From Crocinitomicaceae bacterium (GTDB taxonomy: Bacteria > Bacteroidota > Bacteroidia > Flavobacteriales_D > Crocinitomicaceae), in NCBI GenBank assembly GCA_029252405.1, contig JAQXBM010000087.1, positions 52,736 to 116,735 of the forward strand: DNA of 64,000 bases, in the 5' to 3' direction. Under the pieces are notes generated by a model, which searched no databases, was not told where the DNA came from, and saw nothing but the letters and a program-made list of their open reading frames with translations. Positions 23,287-34,767 of this stretch are shown in pieces; the stretch's first letter is position 1; each line of letters starts with the position of its first letter. The position numbers and the translations under genes were made by a program.

Positions 23287-25488
23287 TCAGGAAGAAACAA
23301 GAATGCCATATTCGCGAAGTTGAAGCATGGCATTTGAATACCAAAAAGGCTCAAAATCATCGAAATACGTTTCGAAATCTTTTTTCAACGCAGCGATTGT
23401 TTTGCGAGAAGGTGATTCAACCGTAAGGTCCTCCAATTGATCGATGAACCAAATTCCTTCTTCCAAAGGTAGAGACACTTCAATTAGATCTGTTCTTGTG
23501 TGAATCGTCACCCCGAGCATTTCCCACGTTTCGCCTCGCTTCGATTTCTCGAACCTCGAAACTTCAGGATCACCACCCAGCCAAATGGGTTTCGCCGTGG
23601 ATTTCATGAATTCCATGGGTTCATTTTCGAGGCATTCTTCAATATAGTTCGATGGAATTGTTGTTCGAGGTACTTTGAATCCCATTTCGTTCTGATCAAA
23701 CCAATCAGAAAGTGGAAGGTCAAATCCAAGTCCGTGCATGAAATTGAACAATGATTTTTTCAGTCCAAAACTGAATTTGTTGTGATCGATTCCAGTTGCA
23801 TCGGTGAACTGAACATCGTTGTTAGCAAAAGTGATGTCGTTTAAATGTGGCGTGATTCCATACTCCTCGGGACTTTGTCCAATTGGACTGTGCGTTGTCA
23901 GTGCAAATTGATGCCAGAAGCCTGATTGAATGATGCCCAGCTCAAAGAGTTGTCGCACCATCTCCAAACTATCAATGGTTTCCTGAACCGTCTGCGTAGG
24001 ATATCCATACATCAAATACGAGTGCACCATGATTCCAGCTTCGGTGAAATTGCGCGTCACTCGTGCGACTTGCTCAACCGAAACGCCTTTGTCAATCAAT
24101 TTCAATAAACGATCCGATGCCACTTCAAGTCCCCCCGAAACGCCAATGCACCCAGATTCCTTCAAAAGAACGACCAAATCATGTGTGAAGCTCTTCTCAA
24201 ATCGAATGTTGGTCCACCACGTAACGACCAGTTTTCTTCGAATAATTTCAATTGCCAAAGCACGCATTAAGGCCGGAGGAGCCGCCTCGTCCACAAAGTG
24301 AAATCCACTTTCTCCGGTTTGCGCAGTCAACTCTTCCATTCGATCAACGAGCAACTTTGCCGCAACAGGTTCGTAGAGTTTGATGTAGTCGAGTGAGATG
24401 TCACAAAACGTACATTTCCCCCAATAGCAACCATGCGCCATTGTGAGTTTGTTCCAACGACCATCGCTCCATAAACTGTGCATGGGATTCGCTACTTCAA
24501 TGACGGAAATGTAAGAGTCGAGCAGTAGGTCGGAGTAATCTGGGGTCCCAACTTGCGCTTGTTTGTAGTCTGCTTGCGCGCAGGAATTGTCGTATTGAAC
24601 GGTTCCATTTTCACAATAGAATGTGCGCTTGAATGCGACATCCTTTTCGGAAAGCGATCGAACCAATAATTCAACAGGTAATTCTCCATCGTCGAGGGTG
24701 ATGTAATCGAAAAAGTCAAAAACGCGCGAATCTGAAACTGAGCGCAATTCAGTATTGGGGAATCCTCCGCCCATGGCGACTGTTATCTCTGGATTCGATT
24801 CTTGGATCATTTCCGCGCAGCGAAAAGCACTGTATAAATTCCCGGGAAATGGCACTGAGAAGCAGATCAACTTTGGTTCCAGTTGTTCAATCTTCTCAGA
24901 CAATAATTCCAAAACAATTTTATCGACGTACGAAGGTTCGTTTTGCAGTTGATCATAGAGTTCGTCAAAACTATTTGCGCTAAATCCTAATCGCTCTGCA
25001 TATCGACTGAACCCAAATTCTGGATCAATACATTCAACGATAAAATCAGAGATGTCTTCCAAGAAAAGTGTCGCCAAATGCTTTGCTTTGTCCTGCATTC
25101 CCATCGATCCAAACGCCCATTCCAAATCGTCAATTTGATCAAATCTACTGGCTTCAGGAAAGAAGTTTCGGGTGCAAATTTGACGCGCTAATGACGGTTG
25201 TTTTCCATGCAAGAAATCGATCGCAGCACCAATGGTTTTTAAATAATCCGCCCGCAGGTAAAACATCCGCTCTGCATTTTCAGAACTGATTGATCCCTCT
25301 CGATCTGCTAAAAAGAAGATTTCTCGAAGTCCATGATGGGAGAATATCTTTAGGATTACTTCGATCCCCAAATCGCATTGAAAGGACGAGATATCCTTGG
25401 TATTCAAGAACCCCTTCAAATAGGCCGTTGCGGGGTACGGTGTATTCAATTGGGTAAATGGAGGAGTGATGAGAAGAACGTCTTTCAC
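23287..25488 (-). CDS. B12-binding-domain radical SAM protein
   Basis: 733 aa; 'HGCYWGKCTFCDISLDY' cluster motif, 'GCIGVSGGLEVASDRLLKLIDKGVSVEQV', N-terminal 'VLLITPPFTQLNTPYPATAYLKGFL'. Confidence 0.88.
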   Translation of the reverse strand: MKDVLLITPPFTQLNTPYPATAYLKGFLNTKDISSFQCDLGIEVILKIFSHHGLREIFFLADREGSISSENAERMFYLRADYLKTIGAAIDFLHGKQPSLARQICTRNFFPEASRFDQIDDLEWAFGSMGMQDKAKHLATLFLEDISDFIVECIDPEFGFSRYAERLGFSANSFDELYDQLQNEPSYVDKIVLELLSEKIEQLEPKLICFSVPFPGNLYSAFRCAEMIQESNPEITVAMGGGFPNTELRSVSDSRVFDFFDYITLDDGELPVELLVRSLSEKDVAFKRTFYCENGTVQYDNSCAQADYKQAQVGTPDYSDLLLDSYISVIEVANPMHSLWSDGRWNKLTMAHGCYWGKCTFCDISLDYIKLYEPVAAKLLVDRMEELTAQTGESGFHFVDEAAPPALMRALAIEIIRRKLVVTWWTNIRFEKSFTHDLVVLLKESGCIGVSGGLEVASDRLLKLIDKGVSVEQVARVTRNFTEAGIMVHSYLMYGYPTQTVQETIDSLEMVRQLFELGIIQSGFWHQFALTTHSPIGQSPEEYGITPHLNDITFANNDVQFTDATGIDHNKFSFGLKKSLFNFMHGLGFDLPLSDWFDQNEMGFKVPRTTIPSNYIEECLENEPMEFMKSTAKPIWLGGDPEVSRFEKSKRGETWEMLGVTIHTRTDLIEVSLPLEEGIWFIDQLEDLTVESPSRKTIAALKKDFETYFDDFEPFWYSNAMLQLREYGILVSS

Positions 25489-25671
25489 ACGAATGTTTTA
25501 TGCAGATAAAGGTACAGGATTCTAGGAACAAACATGGATCAAGTATTCGAAATGTCAAAATGGGTATTTGTACGTATATTGAAACGACAATCGTATTCTA
25601 ACTTGCGGTTGACTTCTTCGATCTGATATCAATTAAGAAATTAATATATCACTACATCAAAATAAAAAAGC

Positions 25672-27093
25672 ATGGCAAAGCAATACAAAACTCCCGGAGT
25701 ATACATCACAGAAGTGAATTCTTTCGGTTCCAGCATTGTTGCAAATGAAACGGCAATACCTGTATTTTTAGGTTTAACGGAATATGCTAATAATCCTAAG
25801 GGTGACTCGCTAAACAAAGTTAAAGGGTCAAGCATTGTAACTGAACCAGTTCTGGTTGGTAGCATACTGGAATATGAAAATACGTTTGGAGGACCTGATG
25901 AAACTGGAAGAATCTATGTGACAGCATCAACTGATAAAGACGGAAAGGTCTACTCAGCTCAAAATAAGAATCAAGATGGAACAGAAGATTACGAACCTGG
26001 ATTGATGCACCCATCAGTTTTTAACTTCTTTTCCAATGGAGGAGGAAGTTGCTACATTGTTTCATTAGGAAAGTATGAGGATTTCAAGAATGAAATGGCC
26101 TCAACGATAACAACTGAAATGAACTTTATTGAGGAAGCGATCAAAATGGCAGAAACCGCAACATTGATTCTACCTACAGATTTAATTCGTTTTGGTGGCT
26201 CAAATTACTACAATTGGGGAACTCAACTCACGAATTTCTCAGAGCAAGAAAAGAAGTACTTCACGGTACTTGATGTTATTCAGGAAGAGCCAAATAATCC
26301 AGTGTTCAAAACAAATGATATTGATGCCTACAGGGATTCGGTTACTCCAGATTTTCCAAGTTATGCCGGAGCTTACTTCCCTTATTTGAAATCACGAACT
26401 CCTTATGCGTTTAAAGGCGATTTATCAAATGTTTATTTAGATGAAAAGCTATTGGCAGATAGCGATAGTGCTACGATCGAATCGGTAAAAACGTTTTTAG
26501 CAACGAATTACATCAATATGCCTCCTTCGCCATTTATGGCTGGAATTTACAGCCGTTTGGATAACGCATCGGGTGTTTGGACGCCTCCAGCAAATGTTAG
26601 TCCAATAGACGTTTCTGGACCTTTAGTGCCATTGACAAACAAAGAACAAGAAGGTCTCAATGTAGATGCAACATCAGGTAAATCGATCAATGCAATTCGC
26701 AGTTTCACAGGACAAGGAACGCTGGTTTGGGGTGCTCGAACGAACGATGGAAACAGCATGGATTGGAGATACGTCAATGTTCGACGCCTTTTTATTGCTA
26801 TGGAAACGGATATCAGCATGGCGCTCGAAGCATTTGTCTTCAAACCAAATGTCCACAATACATGGGTAGAAGTGAAAACCATGATAGAGAGCTACCTGTT
26901 AGGTTTGTTTAACGACGGAGCGTTCGCTGGAACGACTCCTGAAACGAGCTATCAAGTTATGGTTGGGAAAGGTGAAACGATGACCGACGAGGATATCTTG
27001 AATGGTTACATGCGCGTTTCCATTCAGGTTGCACCAGTGAGACCAGCAGAATTCATTGTTTTGACATTTACTCAGATGGTTGGGGACCATTAA
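25672..27093 (+). CDS. Contractile injection system / phage-tail sheath protein
   Basis: N-terminus 'YKTPGVYITEVNSFGSSIVANETAIPVFLGLTEYA'; C-terminus 'GARTNDGNSMDWRYVNVRRLFIAMETDISMALEAFVFKPN...GYMRVSIQVAPVRPAEFIVLTFTQMV'. Confidence 0.93.
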   Translation: MAKQYKTPGVYITEVNSFGSSIVANETAIPVFLGLTEYANNPKGDSLNKVKGSSIVTEPVLVGSILEYENTFGGPDETGRIYVTASTDKDGKVYSAQNKNQDGTEDYEPGLMHPSVFNFFSNGGGSCYIVSLGKYEDFKNEMASTITTEMNFIEEAIKMAETATLILPTDLIRFGGSNYYNWGTQLTNFSEQEKKYFTVLDVIQEEPNNPVFKTNDIDAYRDSVTPDFPSYAGAYFPYLKSRTPYAFKGDLSNVYLDEKLLADSDSATIESVKTFLATNYINMPPSPFMAGIYSRLDNASGVWTPPANVSPIDVSGPLVPLTNKEQEGLNVDATSGKSINAIRSFTGQGTLVWGARTNDGNSMDWRYVNVRRLFIAMETDISMALEAFVFKPNVHNTWVEVKTMIESYLLGLFNDGAFAGTTPETSYQVMVGKGETMTDEDILNGYMRVSIQVAPVRPAEFIVLTFTQMVGDH

Positions 27094-28410: not shown

Positions 28411-28803
28411 TTACAAATCTCGAATGTCATTCCGTGATAAGTATACTTCCACGATTATTCGCGATACAAGTTCTAAGTTAATATCACCCGGATGGACCTT
28501 CAATCGATACAGCGCTTTTGTTTTTGATTCTGGAATTCTCTCAATAATCCCTAGTTCTAACATCACTTTTCGCACGAGAATTTTACCTCCATACCCGAAA
28601 CGAAAGGATTTATTGTTGATTTCATCCTTCACTGCGATGCGGTTGAGCATGTTGTACGTCCGATTGAAATACTGCTTCATTTGCTTGATGCGCACCTTGG
28701 AAACATCGTCCCCATGAAGAACTGTTGCGGTGTACTTCGCAATTTCGTTGAATTCTGCTAAAAACGCTTTTCGCTCTTCGGGTGTTTGAGTCATCTGGTG
28801 CAA
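28411..28803 (-). CDS. Hypothetical protein
   Basis: 130 aa intact ORF in a gene-sized gap; no family recognised. Confidence 0.55.
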   Translation of the reverse strand: MHQMTQTPEERKAFLAEFNEIAKYTATVLHGDDVSKVRIKQMKQYFNRTYNMLNRIAVKDEINNKSFRFGYGGKILVRKVMLELGIIERIPESKTKALYRLKVHPGDINLELVSRIIVEVYLSRNDIRDL

Positions 28804-30284: not shown

Positions 30285-30561
30285 GTCCGAACTTTCGGTT
30301 TTCATATTGTTGATTCATAGTGATTAAGCAGGTTTGTTGCGCATAAGTCCTGAATCGACACAAAACACAGTTTAATTTTAGGATTGATTTCAGGCGCGAA
30401 AACCCGCATCTTTTGCCTTGGTTGCAACAGGTATTTTTACGGAGTACCCCATACTATTTTACGACAAAAGATTTACAAATTTCAGCAGGAGCAAAGGGCA
30501 AAAATATAGATAGAAAGTATTGATTTAGTAATTAGGTTTGAATGAATTAAAACAAATTATT

Positions 30562-33500
30562 ATGAAAAAAAATCTATCACTTTTAATTACTGTCCTGATA
30601 ATCTGCTTTCAGGCTAGCGCGCAGATACCTGCGCCCCCGACCTATTCCGGAACAACCACGATTTGTACCGGTCAAAACACCACAATAACCGCAATTGGTG
30701 AAGGTGGTGCAACCTTCGCTTGGTGGGATGCCCCAACTGGAGGGAACCTTCTTTCCTCAGTATCGTCTTATACTACTCTTGTATTTGGTGCTTCTGGGAC
30801 GTACAATTATTATGTTGATCAAACGAATAATGGCTTCGTGAGTTCAAGAACTCACGTAATTGTAACTGTAAACTTAACTCCAGTAATATCTGTTTCTGGT
30901 TTTCCTTTATCAATGTGTATTGGGCAATCATCAGATTTAACGGCTTCTGGTGCTGATACATATCAATGGACACCAGTCGGTTTAACAGGTACTACAATTA
31001 CAGTTTCGCCAGTAGCAACGTCAACTTATTCAGTAATTGGAAACACTCTAGGGTGTGTATCAAATACCGCAAACATTACGGTTACGGTATTTGATATCAA
31101 CGCAATTACGGATAAAACGATTTGTGATGGCACAAGTACAACACTTGCGACATCAGGTGCGGATACTTATGTATGGAACCCTGGAGGATTAACAGGAAGC
31201 TCAATTGTAGTTTCACCTTCAACAACAACGACGTATACTGTGACTGGAACACAATCAGCTACTGGATGCACTTCAACGGAGACTGTGACGGTAAATGTCA
31301 ATCCTTCTCCCGTTTTACCTACTGTAACTCCTGATTTTTCGATCACTTCAGGTGAAACAGCAACTTTGACAGCTTCAGAACCAATTTCAACTACATACAG
31401 TTGGTCAACAAATTTTGGTAACTATGGATCGTTAACTGGTCCAACGGTAATTGTTAAACCAACAACTACTACCACTTATTCTGTTGTGAGCAAAACGGCT
31501 TTAAATTGTTCTTCTCCTCCTTCTCCGATTGTGGTGACAGTAAATCAAATCCCTGAAGGATTAGGAACTACGGCAATTTGTGGAGGAAGTTCAACCACGC
31601 TTACGGCAATTGGTGGAGGACCTTTCACATGGTACAATGCTCAAACAGGCGGAACCTTACTTTTTACAGGTGCTGCATATACGACTCCTCCATTGTCGAC
31701 CAGTGCTTCATATTGGGTTTCTGATAACGGAAGTCCAAGGAAAGAGTACAAAGTATTCGTTTTTGAAGGAGCTACGAATGTGACATCATCGCCAAGCTCA
31801 GTATGTCCAGGATCTAGTTCTAACTTAAGTGCTGATGTGGTGGGTGGTCAAATTAATTGGTTCACTGCGCCAACAGGAGGAACTTCTATTGGCACAACTT
31901 TTAGTGGTTCAAATCTTACGGTAACACCAGGAACGACAACAACCTATTACGCTGAAGGACAAAGTGGTCAAGGTACTACTACGTTCAACTATACTGGAGG
32001 TCTTCAAACATGGACAGTTCCAGATGGAGTTACTTCTGTTGAAATTGACGCTTATGGGGCAGACGGCGGTAACGATTATGGATCTGGAGGAACTGGAACA
32101 GGAGGTAATGGCGGTCGAGTTCAAGCAACGCTAAATGTTACGCCTGGAGAAGTATTGAATATTTATGTCGGTAAAAGAGGTGTAAGCCAATACAATGGAC
32201 CAGCTACATTTAATGGTGGTGGAAGTGGTTCTTCGTCAGGTGGTGGAGCTAGTGACATCAGAATTGGTGGCACGGCTTTAACCGATAGAGTAATTGTTGC
32301 TGGCGGTGGTGGCGGCGCTGAGATTTGTTGTAATGATTTCGGTGTTGGTGGCGTCGGCGGCGGTTTAGTCGGCGGAAATGCTACTGGTACTGGCACCCTT
32401 TCTCAAAAAGGAAAAGGTGGTTCTCAAACCAGTGGTGGCGGAGCCGGATATCAACCTAGTTCCCACGGTGGGTGGGGATATGGAGGTGGCGGTACCATCT
32501 ATGCTTCTGGTGGAGGCGGTGGCTGGTATGGCGGCGGCGGCGCAAGCGATATTCGCGGCGGTGGCGGCGGAAGCAGCTACACAGATCCTTCTAGAACGCA
32601 CAATGTCATTCACGATCAAGGAGTTCGTGATGGTTTCGGTCTAGTATATGTGCGTTACGGTAGTTCATGCACAGCTGCGCGTGTACCTGTTACAGTTACA
32701 GTGATTAATGATGTTGCTGCACCAGTTGCTGATGTAGCTTCGTTATCAAATGTAACGGATCAATGTTCAGTTGCGACTTTAACAGCTCCAACTGCGACAG
32801 ATAACTGTGCTGGACCAATAACAGCAACAAATAATGCGACATTCCCAATTACAGCTCAAGGAACGACAATGGTTACTTGGACTTACGACGATGGAAACGG
32901 TAACACCTCAACTCAATCGCAAAATGTTGTGATTGCCGATGTCACTGCACCTGTTGCGGATGCCGCTTCTTTGTCTAATGTTACTGCTGAATGTTCAGTT
33001 GCAACGTTGTCAGCGCCAACAGCGACAGACAACTGTGTGGGATCAATTACAGCAACGCACAATGCTACATTACCGATTACCACTCAAGGAACTACAATGG
33101 TTACTTGGACGTATGATGATGGACACGGAAATACTTCAACACAAACACAGAACGTTGTAATTAATGATATTACTGCGCCAATAGCAGATCTAGCTTCGCT
33201 ATCAACTATTACGGATGAATGTTCAGTTTCAGCTTTAACAGCTCCAACTGCCACAGACAATTGTGTGGGATCAATTACAGCAACGCACAATGCAAGCTTA
33301 CCGATTACAACTCAAGGAACAACTGTGGTTACTTGGACGTATGATGACGGACACGGTAATGTTTCAACTCAAACACAAGATGTTGTGATTAATGATGTTA
33401 CTACGCCAGTTGCGGACCTACTTTCGTTATCAACTATTACAGATGATTGTTCAGTTGCAACGTTAACGGCACCTACAGCCACTGACAACTGTTCTGGATC

Positions 33501-34767
33501 GTTAACAGGATCGCACAATGTGAGCTTGCCAATAACAGCCCAAGGGACAACAGTGGTTACTTGGACATACAATGATGGAAATGGTAACACATCCACTCAA
33601 CTACAGAATGTAGTGATTACGGATGTGATCTCACCAGTTGCGGACTTAGCCTTACTGGCGGATGTTACTTCGGAATGTTCAGTTGCAACTTTAACAGCTC
33701 CAACAGCAACAGATAACTGTGTAGGGTCAATTGCAGGAACGCACAACGCGACATTGCCGATTACAACTCAAGGGACAACGGTGGTCACTTGGACGTACGA
33801 CGATGGAAACGGTAACTCCTCAACTCAAGCGCAAAATGTTGTCATTGCTGATGTTACTGCGCCTGTTGGAGATGTCGCTACTTTGGCAGATGTTACAGAA
33901 GAATGTTCAGTTGTGACTTTAACAGCTCCAACAGCGACAGATAACTGTGCTGGATCAATAGCAGGAACGCACAATGCGACCTTGCCAATTACTAGTCAGG
34001 GGACAACAGTTGTCACTTGGACGTATGACGATGGAAACGGTAATACCTCAACTCAACTGCAAAATGTTGTAGTGGCAGATGTTACTGCACCAGTTGCAGA
34101 TGTTGCGACTTTAGCAGATGTTACAGATTGTTTTGAAGCGACAGCAACAGCGCCAACAGCAACAGATAACTGTACAGGAGCCTCAGTTGGAACGCCAGAT
34201 GTTTCCTTCCCGATCACAACTCCTGGGACAACAGTTGTTACTTGGACATATGATGATGGAAATGGAAATACATCGACCCAAACACAAAATGTTATTGTGA
34301 ACTCAGTTGATAATAATATCACTCAATCTGGAAGCTTGTTAACGGCTGATGCGAGCGGAGCGTCTTACCAATGGTTAGATTGTGACAATGGTAATGCTAT
34401 CATTTCTGGTGAAACAAATCAATCATATTCGCCAATGGTGACAGGTAACTTTGCTGTGGAGGTGACTGAAAACGGATGCATAGATACTTCGGCTTGTTTC
34501 CTTGTTGATTTCACTGGGATTGATGACTTAACATCAGCCAAGTTGACACTTTATCCAAACCCTTCAAATGATGGATACGTTAACATTCAATTCGAAGGAA
34601 CAATATCAGCAGTCCTATTATACGATATGTTAGGTAGAGTTATTGAAGTTCCTTTTAATGTTGAACAAGGATTACTTGATGCTTCATCATTGGAGGCTGG
34701 AAAATACATGCTCAGCATTAACTCGAATGAAGGAACATTTATGGCACAATTGATAATTGTAAAATAG
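30562..34767 (+). CDS. Large adhesin: Ig-like region, Gly-rich domain, seven HYR-like repeats, T9SS type A domain
   Basis: Signal peptide MKKNLSLLITVLIICFQASAQ; Gly-rich 'GRVQATLNVTPGEVLNIYVGKRG...GGGGGSSY'; HYR-like repeats; 'LTLYPNPSNDGYVNIQFEG...LEAGKYMLSINSNEGTFMAQLIIVK'. Confidence 0.92.
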   Translation: MKKNLSLLITVLIICFQASAQIPAPPTYSGTTTICTGQNTTITAIGEGGATFAWWDAPTGGNLLSSVSSYTTLVFGASGTYNYYVDQTNNGFVSSRTHVIVTVNLTPVISVSGFPLSMCIGQSSDLTASGADTYQWTPVGLTGTTITVSPVATSTYSVIGNTLGCVSNTANITVTVFDINAITDKTICDGTSTTLATSGADTYVWNPGGLTGSSIVVSPSTTTTYTVTGTQSATGCTSTETVTVNVNPSPVLPTVTPDFSITSGETATLTASEPISTTYSWSTNFGNYGSLTGPTVIVKPTTTTTYSVVSKTALNCSSPPSPIVVTVNQIPEGLGTTAICGGSSTTLTAIGGGPFTWYNAQTGGTLLFTGAAYTTPPLSTSASYWVSDNGSPRKEYKVFVFEGATNVTSSPSSVCPGSSSNLSADVVGGQINWFTAPTGGTSIGTTFSGSNLTVTPGTTTTYYAEGQSGQGTTTFNYTGGLQTWTVPDGVTSVEIDAYGADGGNDYGSGGTGTGGNGGRVQATLNVTPGEVLNIYVGKRGVSQYNGPATFNGGGSGSSSGGGASDIRIGGTALTDRVIVAGGGGGAEICCNDFGVGGVGGGLVGGNATGTGTLSQKGKGGSQTSGGGAGYQPSSHGGWGYGGGGTIYASGGGGGWYGGGGASDIRGGGGGSSYTDPSRTHNVIHDQGVRDGFGLVYVRYGSSCTAARVPVTVTVINDVAAPVADVASLSNVTDQCSVATLTAPTATDNCAGPITATNNATFPITAQGTTMVTWTYDDGNGNTSTQSQNVVIADVTAPVADAASLSNVTAECSVATLSAPTATDNCVGSITATHNATLPITTQGTTMVTWTYDDGHGNTSTQTQNVVINDITAPIADLASLSTITDECSVSALTAPTATDNCVGSITATHNASLPITTQGTTVVTWTYDDGHGNVSTQTQDVVINDVTTPVADLLSLSTITDDCSVATLTAPTATDNCSGSLTGSHNVSLPITAQGTTVVTWTYNDGNGNTSTQLQNVVITDVISPVADLALLADVTSECSVATLTAPTATDNCVGSIAGTHNATLPITTQGTTVVTWTYDDGNGNSSTQAQNVVIADVTAPVGDVATLADVTEECSVVTLTAPTATDNCAGSIAGTHNATLPITSQGTTVVTWTYDDGNGNTSTQLQNVVVADVTAPVADVATLADVTDCFEATATAPTATDNCTGASVGTPDVSFPITTPGTTVVTWTYDDGNGNTSTQTQNVIVNSVDNNITQSGSLLTADASGASYQWLDCDNGNAIISGETNQSYSPMVTGNFAVEVTENGCIDTSACFLVDFTGIDDLTSAKLTLYPNPSNDGYVNIQFEGTISAVLLYDMLGRVIEVPFNVEQGLLDASSLEAGKYMLSINSNEGTFMAQLIIVK
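32710..34305 (+). repeat. Seven HYR-like repeats of 76 codons (228 bp)
   Basis: 'DVTAPVADxASLSxVTxECSVATLTAPTATDNCxGSIxxTHNATLPITTQGTTVVTWTYDDGNGNTSTQxQNVVI'. Starts at 32710, 32938 and 34078 fit an exact 228-bp register. Confidence 0.92.

What the first reader, a model, noticed from the sequence alone, without database searches (positions are those of the whole stretch)
25672..27093. Lone contractile-injection/phage tail sheath gene without any tail neighbours
A full-length sheath (473 aa) with intact conserved N-terminus (YKTPGVYITEV) and C-terminal sheath motif (WRYVNVRRLF...RPAEFIVLTF) sits between a radical SAM gene and a T9SS-substrate gene. No tube, baseplate, spike, LysM, AAA+ ATPase or tape-measure ORF is seen within about 25 kb to the left or 37 kb to the right. 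Known CIS (eCIS/PVC/Afp, MACs, T6SS) encode sheath beside tube and baseplate genes. The gene may be a dispersed part of a CIS encoded elsewhere, a decoy or regulatory sheath, or a domesticated sheath-only assembly.
Basis: partly seen in the sequence, partly recalled or inferred. Interest (0 to 1): 0.7.

Follow-up and report, generated by a model that had tools for sequence, protein, structure and literature searches.

The report
Conserved lone contractile sheath gene
A Flavobacteriales bacterium keeps an intact gene for the contractile sleeve of a phage-tail-like syringe far from any other syringe gene; the lone gene is conserved in relatives, all of which also carry syringe genes elsewhere, so it may supply an alternative sleeve subunit.

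Summary
Window 25672-27093 encodes an intact 473-aa sheath of a contractile injection system (CIS), of the AlgoCIS/Anabaena type. No other CIS gene lies in the window. The genome has an AlgoCIS-like cluster on another contig (C70), with its own 710-aa sheath and two tubes, and a T6SS-iii-like cluster on C62. The lone gene is not a decayed copy. Orthologues (77% and 69% identity) sit beside the same B12-radical-SAM gene in two congeners, two more occur in other Flavobacteriales, and dN/dS is about 0.08-0.13. It keeps 76 of 79 residues conserved in 61 CIS sheaths but lacks ~220 residues (most likely the outward domain) of its nearest CIS-embedded relatives. All five carriers have CIS tube genes elsewhere. 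Lone CIS sheaths recur independently in the order (G264, G037, G091), and one genome has only a sheath+tube pair. G037 has a lone sheath with no detectable tube or gp25. Best reading: a short sheath subunit acting in trans on a resident CIS (about 0.4). Rivals: slowly decaying relic, tube-independent sheath polymer, anti-CIS decoy. Function is untested. I found no description of such genes in the papers searched.

The parts
25672..27093 (+). lone CIS sheath gene, 473 aa, no outward domain
25672..25773 (+). N-terminal arm (residues 1-34, KTPGVYITE motif), conserved as in CIS sheaths; taken to be the strand donor of the handshake by analogy with AlgoCIS
   Evidence: conserved positions P8 G9 V10 E14 T27 A28 P30 F32 G34 kept; handshake described in PMC8894135
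26506..27075 (+). sheath-wall core and C-terminal arm (residues 279-468), containing PF17482 (residues 364-467)
   Evidence: 87% identical to the Polaribacter CIS sheath over this part
25489..25671 (.). intergenic region between the divergent radical SAM gene and the sheath; contains words conserved in G029 (28 bp) and G005 (CTAACTTGC)
23287..25488 (-). B12-binding/radical SAM gene, the syntenic neighbour in G000, G005 and G029; no evidence of a functional link
28411..28803 (-). conserved 130-aa ORF near the sheath in G000, G029 and G005; marks synteny, no evidence of a functional link

Best explanation
The gene is an intact CIS sheath of the AlgoCIS type, under purifying selection, that exists as a one-gene locus. 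Shown: it falls in one clade with the 698-aa sheaths of a single-sheath CIS lineage (Polaribacter, NORP294) but lacks ~220 central residues of these; it keeps both terminal arms and almost all residues conserved in CIS sheaths; it has stayed beside the same gene in three species; and all five known carriers encode CIS tube genes elsewhere. Inferred: it is expressed separately and supplies a short, undecorated sheath subunit in trans, which joins the handshake lattice around the tube of a resident CIS (whole particles, certain layers, or an alternative batch) and so changes surface, length or firing, as the extra in-cluster sheath genes of AFP/PVC and of relatives G005 and G028 may do. Expression, co-assembly and effect are not shown.
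For: Intact and homologous over its whole length to solved CIS sheaths; purifying selection and synteny over three species; 76 of 79 conserved sheath positions kept, two of the three departures (S380D, W413F) shared with the CIS-embedded sheaths of its clade; tube genes elsewhere in 5 of 5 carriers, in the genus 3 of 11 tube-positive against 0 of 23 tube-negative genomes, Fisher p 0.028 without correction for kinship; short and long sheath paralogues side by side in the clusters of G005 and G028; several sheath proteins in PVC/AFP (PMC8894135).
Against: The C70 sheath of this genome belongs to another lineage, so the tube interface may not fit. No promoter word is shared with the C70 cluster. 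G037 keeps a lone sheath (of another origin) without detectable tube or gp25. T6SS islands in trans carry tube and spike parts, not sheaths, in the paper found (PMC13098142).
Confidence: 0.4

Rival explanations
1. Relic: the last intact gene of a lost CIS cluster of the Polaribacter/NORP294 lineage, with no present function and decaying slowly.
For: Its nearest relatives are sheaths of that lineage; G249 shows a stage with only sheath and tube left; G037 (10 of 79 conserved positions changed) and G079 (a 153-aa fragment) look like decay of other lone sheaths.
Against: dN/dS of about 0.08-0.13 over saturated synonymous distance, intact in every complete copy, kept in the same place in three species.
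Confidence: 0.22
2. Stand-alone sheath: the protein polymerises by itself, without tube or baseplate, as a structural or storage assembly unrelated to injection.
For: Lone sheath in G037 without detectable tube or gp25; terminal arms conserved.
Against: Carriers of this orthologue family all have tube genes; residues shared with tube-bound sheaths are kept almost entirely, which a tube-free role would not clearly require.
Confidence: 0.2
3. Decoy or poison subunit: a sheath made apart from the cluster that enters sheaths and blocks or tunes contraction of a resident or incoming contractile tail.
For: Encoded away from the CIS with its own upstream region; adding residues to the sheath N-terminus gives non-contractile particles in AlgoCIS (PMC13314943), so one altered subunit type can in principle block firing.
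Against: The N-terminal arm here has a normal length. Listed phage sheaths match at only 26-30% identity over at most 63% of the protein. No defence genes were recognised next to it (the padloc library was not run).
Confidence: 0.1

Closest known systems
AlgoCIS sheath Alg2 (PDB 7adz, 7ae0, 7aek; PMC8894135)
   Same: Best solved relative by sequence and among the first fold matches; same N-terminal motif, core and C-terminal arm
   Different: Alg2 is 692 aa with domains III and IV extending outward and is encoded in the CIS cluster as its only sheath; the lone gene is 473 aa and outside any cluster
Anabaena All3325 sheath (PDB 7b5h, thylakoid-anchored CIS)
   Same: 484 aa, aligned over residues 2-468, the same short architecture
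   Different: It is a sheath of a working CIS; the lone gene has no CIS neighbours
CIS sheaths of L041 (Polaribacter) and L042 (NORP294)
   Same: Same clade; C-terminal part 87% and 77% identical
   Different: 698 aa with ~220 extra central residues, followed by tube, LysM, VgrG, PAAR, gp25 and gpJ genes
Afp2/3/4 and Pvc2/3/4 multi-sheath systems
   Same: Several sheath paralogues of different size in one organism
   Different: There all sheath genes lie in the cluster
T6SS orphan hcp/vgrG/PAAR islands (PMC13098142)
   Same: Tail parts encoded away from a main cluster
   Different: They carry tube and spike parts, not the sheath

Membership tests
CIS sheath protein (AlgoCIS/AFP/PVC type) | Phage_sheath_1C domain PF17482 over the curated cut-off | tested here: met
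   2.2e-10, 40.9 bits against 26.9
CIS sheath protein (AlgoCIS/AFP/PVC type) | Phage_sheath_1 domain PF04984 over the curated cut-off | tested here: not met
   No match listed for the window gene; but the undoubted C70 CIS sheath also stays below the cut-off, so this model is a poor test for the group
CIS sheath protein (AlgoCIS/AFP/PVC type) | Homology over the whole length to solved CIS sheaths, terminal arms kept | tested here: met
CIS sheath protein (AlgoCIS/AFP/PVC type) | Assembles around a tube and contracts | not testable with these tools
   needs particle purification and EM
CIS gene cluster (eCIS/AlgoCIS) | Sheath encoded beside tube, spike and baseplate genes | tested here: not met
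   genome-wide gp19 and gp25 elsewhere only
T6SS sheath TssC | TssC model PF17541 | tested here: not met
   No match; the T6SS sheath of this genome is a different gene on C62
Prophage tail sheath | Close phage homologues and phage genes around | tested here: not met
   No relative in viral contigs; no phage record covers 80% of the query, listed ones 26-30% identical; neighbours are not phage genes

The most novel reading that the evidence does not exclude
Flavobacteriales repeatedly detach CIS sheath genes, in one clade without the outward domain, and keep them as stand-alone functional loci: either trans-acting alternative sheaths that re-dress a resident particle, or sheath polymers that need no injection machine.
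Probability: 0.35. Interest if true: 0.72.

Novelty: new variant of a known kind. Interest (0 to 1): 0.47.

Why it matters
CIS are thought of as compact clusters, and surveys find them by requiring clustered genes, so lone sheath genes would be missed. A conserved lone sheath would mean either that a CIS particle can be re-dressed with a subunit made elsewhere, which bears on why some systems carry several sheaths, or that the sheath fold has a use outside injection. Both can be tested with one deletion and one particle proteome.

Tried and rejected
Dispersed CIS: an extra gp25 in G000, G005, G029 and G264 first looked like scattered CIS genes. Pfam names TssC and VipA/TssB beside it in G000 and G264, and the G005 and G029 neighbourhoods are homologous to the G000 one, so it is a T6SS-iii-like cluster. 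Phage origin: rejected. Shared promoter with the CIS cluster: longest common word no better than shuffles in G000 and G005. A common partner gene beside the different lone sheaths: none found; a radical SAM orthologue 3.3 kb from G091's lone sheath is the only recurrence, and there the sheath is of another lineage and on the other side of the gene. Single origin of all domain-less sheaths of the clade: rejected when the G249 pair is included (AU p 3e-57), not rejected for the five lone ones (p 0.08). Minus-strand ORF 26547-26882 inside the sheath: taken as a shadow of the sheath frame (inference). NCBIfam gives no name to the sheath. Searches for orphan, solitary or dispersed CIS sheaths in papers found nothing relevant; the library lacks most subscription journals.

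Full report
OBSERVATION. The ORF at 25672-27093 (+) is intact, 473 aa, and reads MAKQYKTPGVYITEV...RPAEFIVLTFTQMVGDH. Pfam finds only the sheath C-terminal domain PF17482. The best solved relatives are CIS sheaths: AlgoCIS (3e-88), a 519-aa sheath (9r9h, 2e-86), Anabaena All3325 (6e-81, aligned over 2-468), then Afp3 and others. An AlphaFold model (mean pLDDT 77; weak at the N-terminal arm and in parts of residues 292-372) has AlgoCIS and Anabaena CIS sheaths as its first five fold matches.

NO NEIGHBOURS. None of 17 proteins from the genome's own CIS cluster matches any other window ORF. The neighbours are a divergent B12-radical SAM gene, T9SS-sorted proteins and a family 1 glycosidase. The sheath's 3' end touches a convergent T9SS gene.

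THE GENOME HAS A CIS ELSEWHERE. Contig C70 carries a Pvc16-type cap protein, a 350-aa protein, a 710-aa sheath, two gp19 tubes, a CIS_tube/LysM protein, a VgrG-like spike, PAAR, gp25, a gpJ-like baseplate, a Peptidase_S74 protein, two large proteins, a tape measure, an AAA+ ATPase and an eCIS_core protein cut by the contig end. A cluster with TssC, TssB, a gp25/TssE and a ClpV-like AAA+ protein lies on C62; I call it T6SS-iii-like from its host group and gene make-up (knowledge, not a typing test). The lone sheath is only 29% (N-terminal) and 55% (C-terminal) identical to the C70 sheath.

CONSERVATION. Orthologues: G029 (77%), G005 (69%), DT_36 (69%) and NORP294 (68%; its contig starts inside the gene). 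In G000, G005 and G029 the gene lies divergent to the same radical SAM gene (80-82% identical between them) and near the same 130-aa ORF. In DT_36 and NORP294 no tail gene follows the sheath, but both contigs begin inside or just before it, so the upstream side is unknown. NG86 dN/dS is 0.078 to G029 and 0.127 to G005, with dS about 1.7, so these values are rough. Of 79 positions conserved in at least 95% of 61 CIS sheaths, 76 are kept.

ORIGIN. The nearest CIS-embedded sheaths are the 698-aa sheaths of single-sheath clusters in a Polaribacter (L041) and in NORP294 (L042). The lone sheaths lack ~220 residues in the middle of these. In AlgoCIS the additional domains III and IV extend outward from the wall (PMC8894135), so the missing part is most likely the outward domain (inference). 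Short and long forms interleave in the tree. The G249 sheath (489 aa) is followed only by a gp19 tube, with no other tail gene in about 40 kb of contig, and is sister to the NORP294 long sheath. One clade for all short forms is rejected (p 3e-57); one origin for the five lone ones is not (p 0.08).

RECURRENCE. In 399 genomes of the order (tube positions) further sheaths without a tube on their contig were found and read: G264 (468 aa; its only gp19 is itself solitary on another contig), G037 (506 aa; no gp19 and no gp25 in a 99% complete genome), G091 (527 aa, beside two other CIS loci in the genome) and a 153-aa fragment in G079. Their places in the tree show separate origins for the first three. 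Only three candidates per genome were scored, so these are lower bounds. Lone CIS sheaths are thus recurrent, not a single oddity. Other MAG contigs that end at the sheath were not counted.

MECHANISM. All five carriers of the window's family have tube genes elsewhere. In the genus this is 3 of 11 tube-positive and 0 of 23 tube-negative genomes (p 0.028, not corrected for kinship). Relatives G005 and G028 encode two short sheaths and a long one inside their clusters, and PVC/AFP have multiple sheath proteins whereas AlgoCIS has one (PMC8894135). I therefore favour a short sheath acting in trans on a resident CIS (0.4). Weak points: the lineage mismatch with the C70 sheath, no shared promoter word, and the existence of G037. 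Relic (0.22), stand-alone polymer (0.2) and decoy (0.1) remain. The relic reading is disfavoured here by constraint and synteny but fits G037, whose sheath departs at 10 of 79 conserved positions.

NOVELTY. The CIS papers found describe clusters; searches for orphan, solitary or dispersed sheaths returned nothing relevant. T6SS orphan islands carry hcp, vgrG and PAAR (PMC13098142). I file this as a new variant of a known kind: the protein is a CIS sheath, while its genetic setting fails the cluster criterion.

Noticed in passing
L040:9995-11984 (G249:C31): A sheath (489 aa) and gp19 tube pair with no other recognisable tail gene in about 40 kb of contig; that tube is the only gp19 found in the genome and no gp25 was found.
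   Followed up: partly
L079:9913-10344 (G264:C2) and L078:9659-11065 (G264:C37): A solitary gp19 tube gene and a solitary sheath gene on different contigs of one genome, which also has a T6SS-like cluster (L086).
   Followed up: partly
L080:9911-11431 (G037:C56): A full-length lone sheath in a 99% complete genome with no detectable gp19 or gp25.
   Followed up: partly
L081:4397-11490 (G091:C12): A lone sheath of another lineage lies 3.3 kb from the orthologue of the window's radical SAM gene, with two VWA-domain genes between them.
   Followed up: partly
L008 and L009 (G000:C70): AlgoCIS-like CIS cluster of this genome with an eCIS_core-domain protein running off the contig end.
   Followed up: partly
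L083 (G000:C62:237500-257400): T6SS-iii-like cluster with TssB, TssC, gp25/TssE and ClpV-like AAA+ in the same genome.
   Followed up: partly
window 28411-28803 (-): 130-aa protein, 87-94% identical in two congeners, without a Pfam or NCBIfam family; more conserved than the sheath beside it.
   Followed up: no
window 30538-34767 (+): 1409-aa T9SS-sorted protein with Ig_7 and HYR_4C repeats, a glycine-rich ALK/LTK-like domain and a match to Ntox16 (25.8 bits, over its cut-off of 25, but no stretch passing on its own).
   Followed up: no
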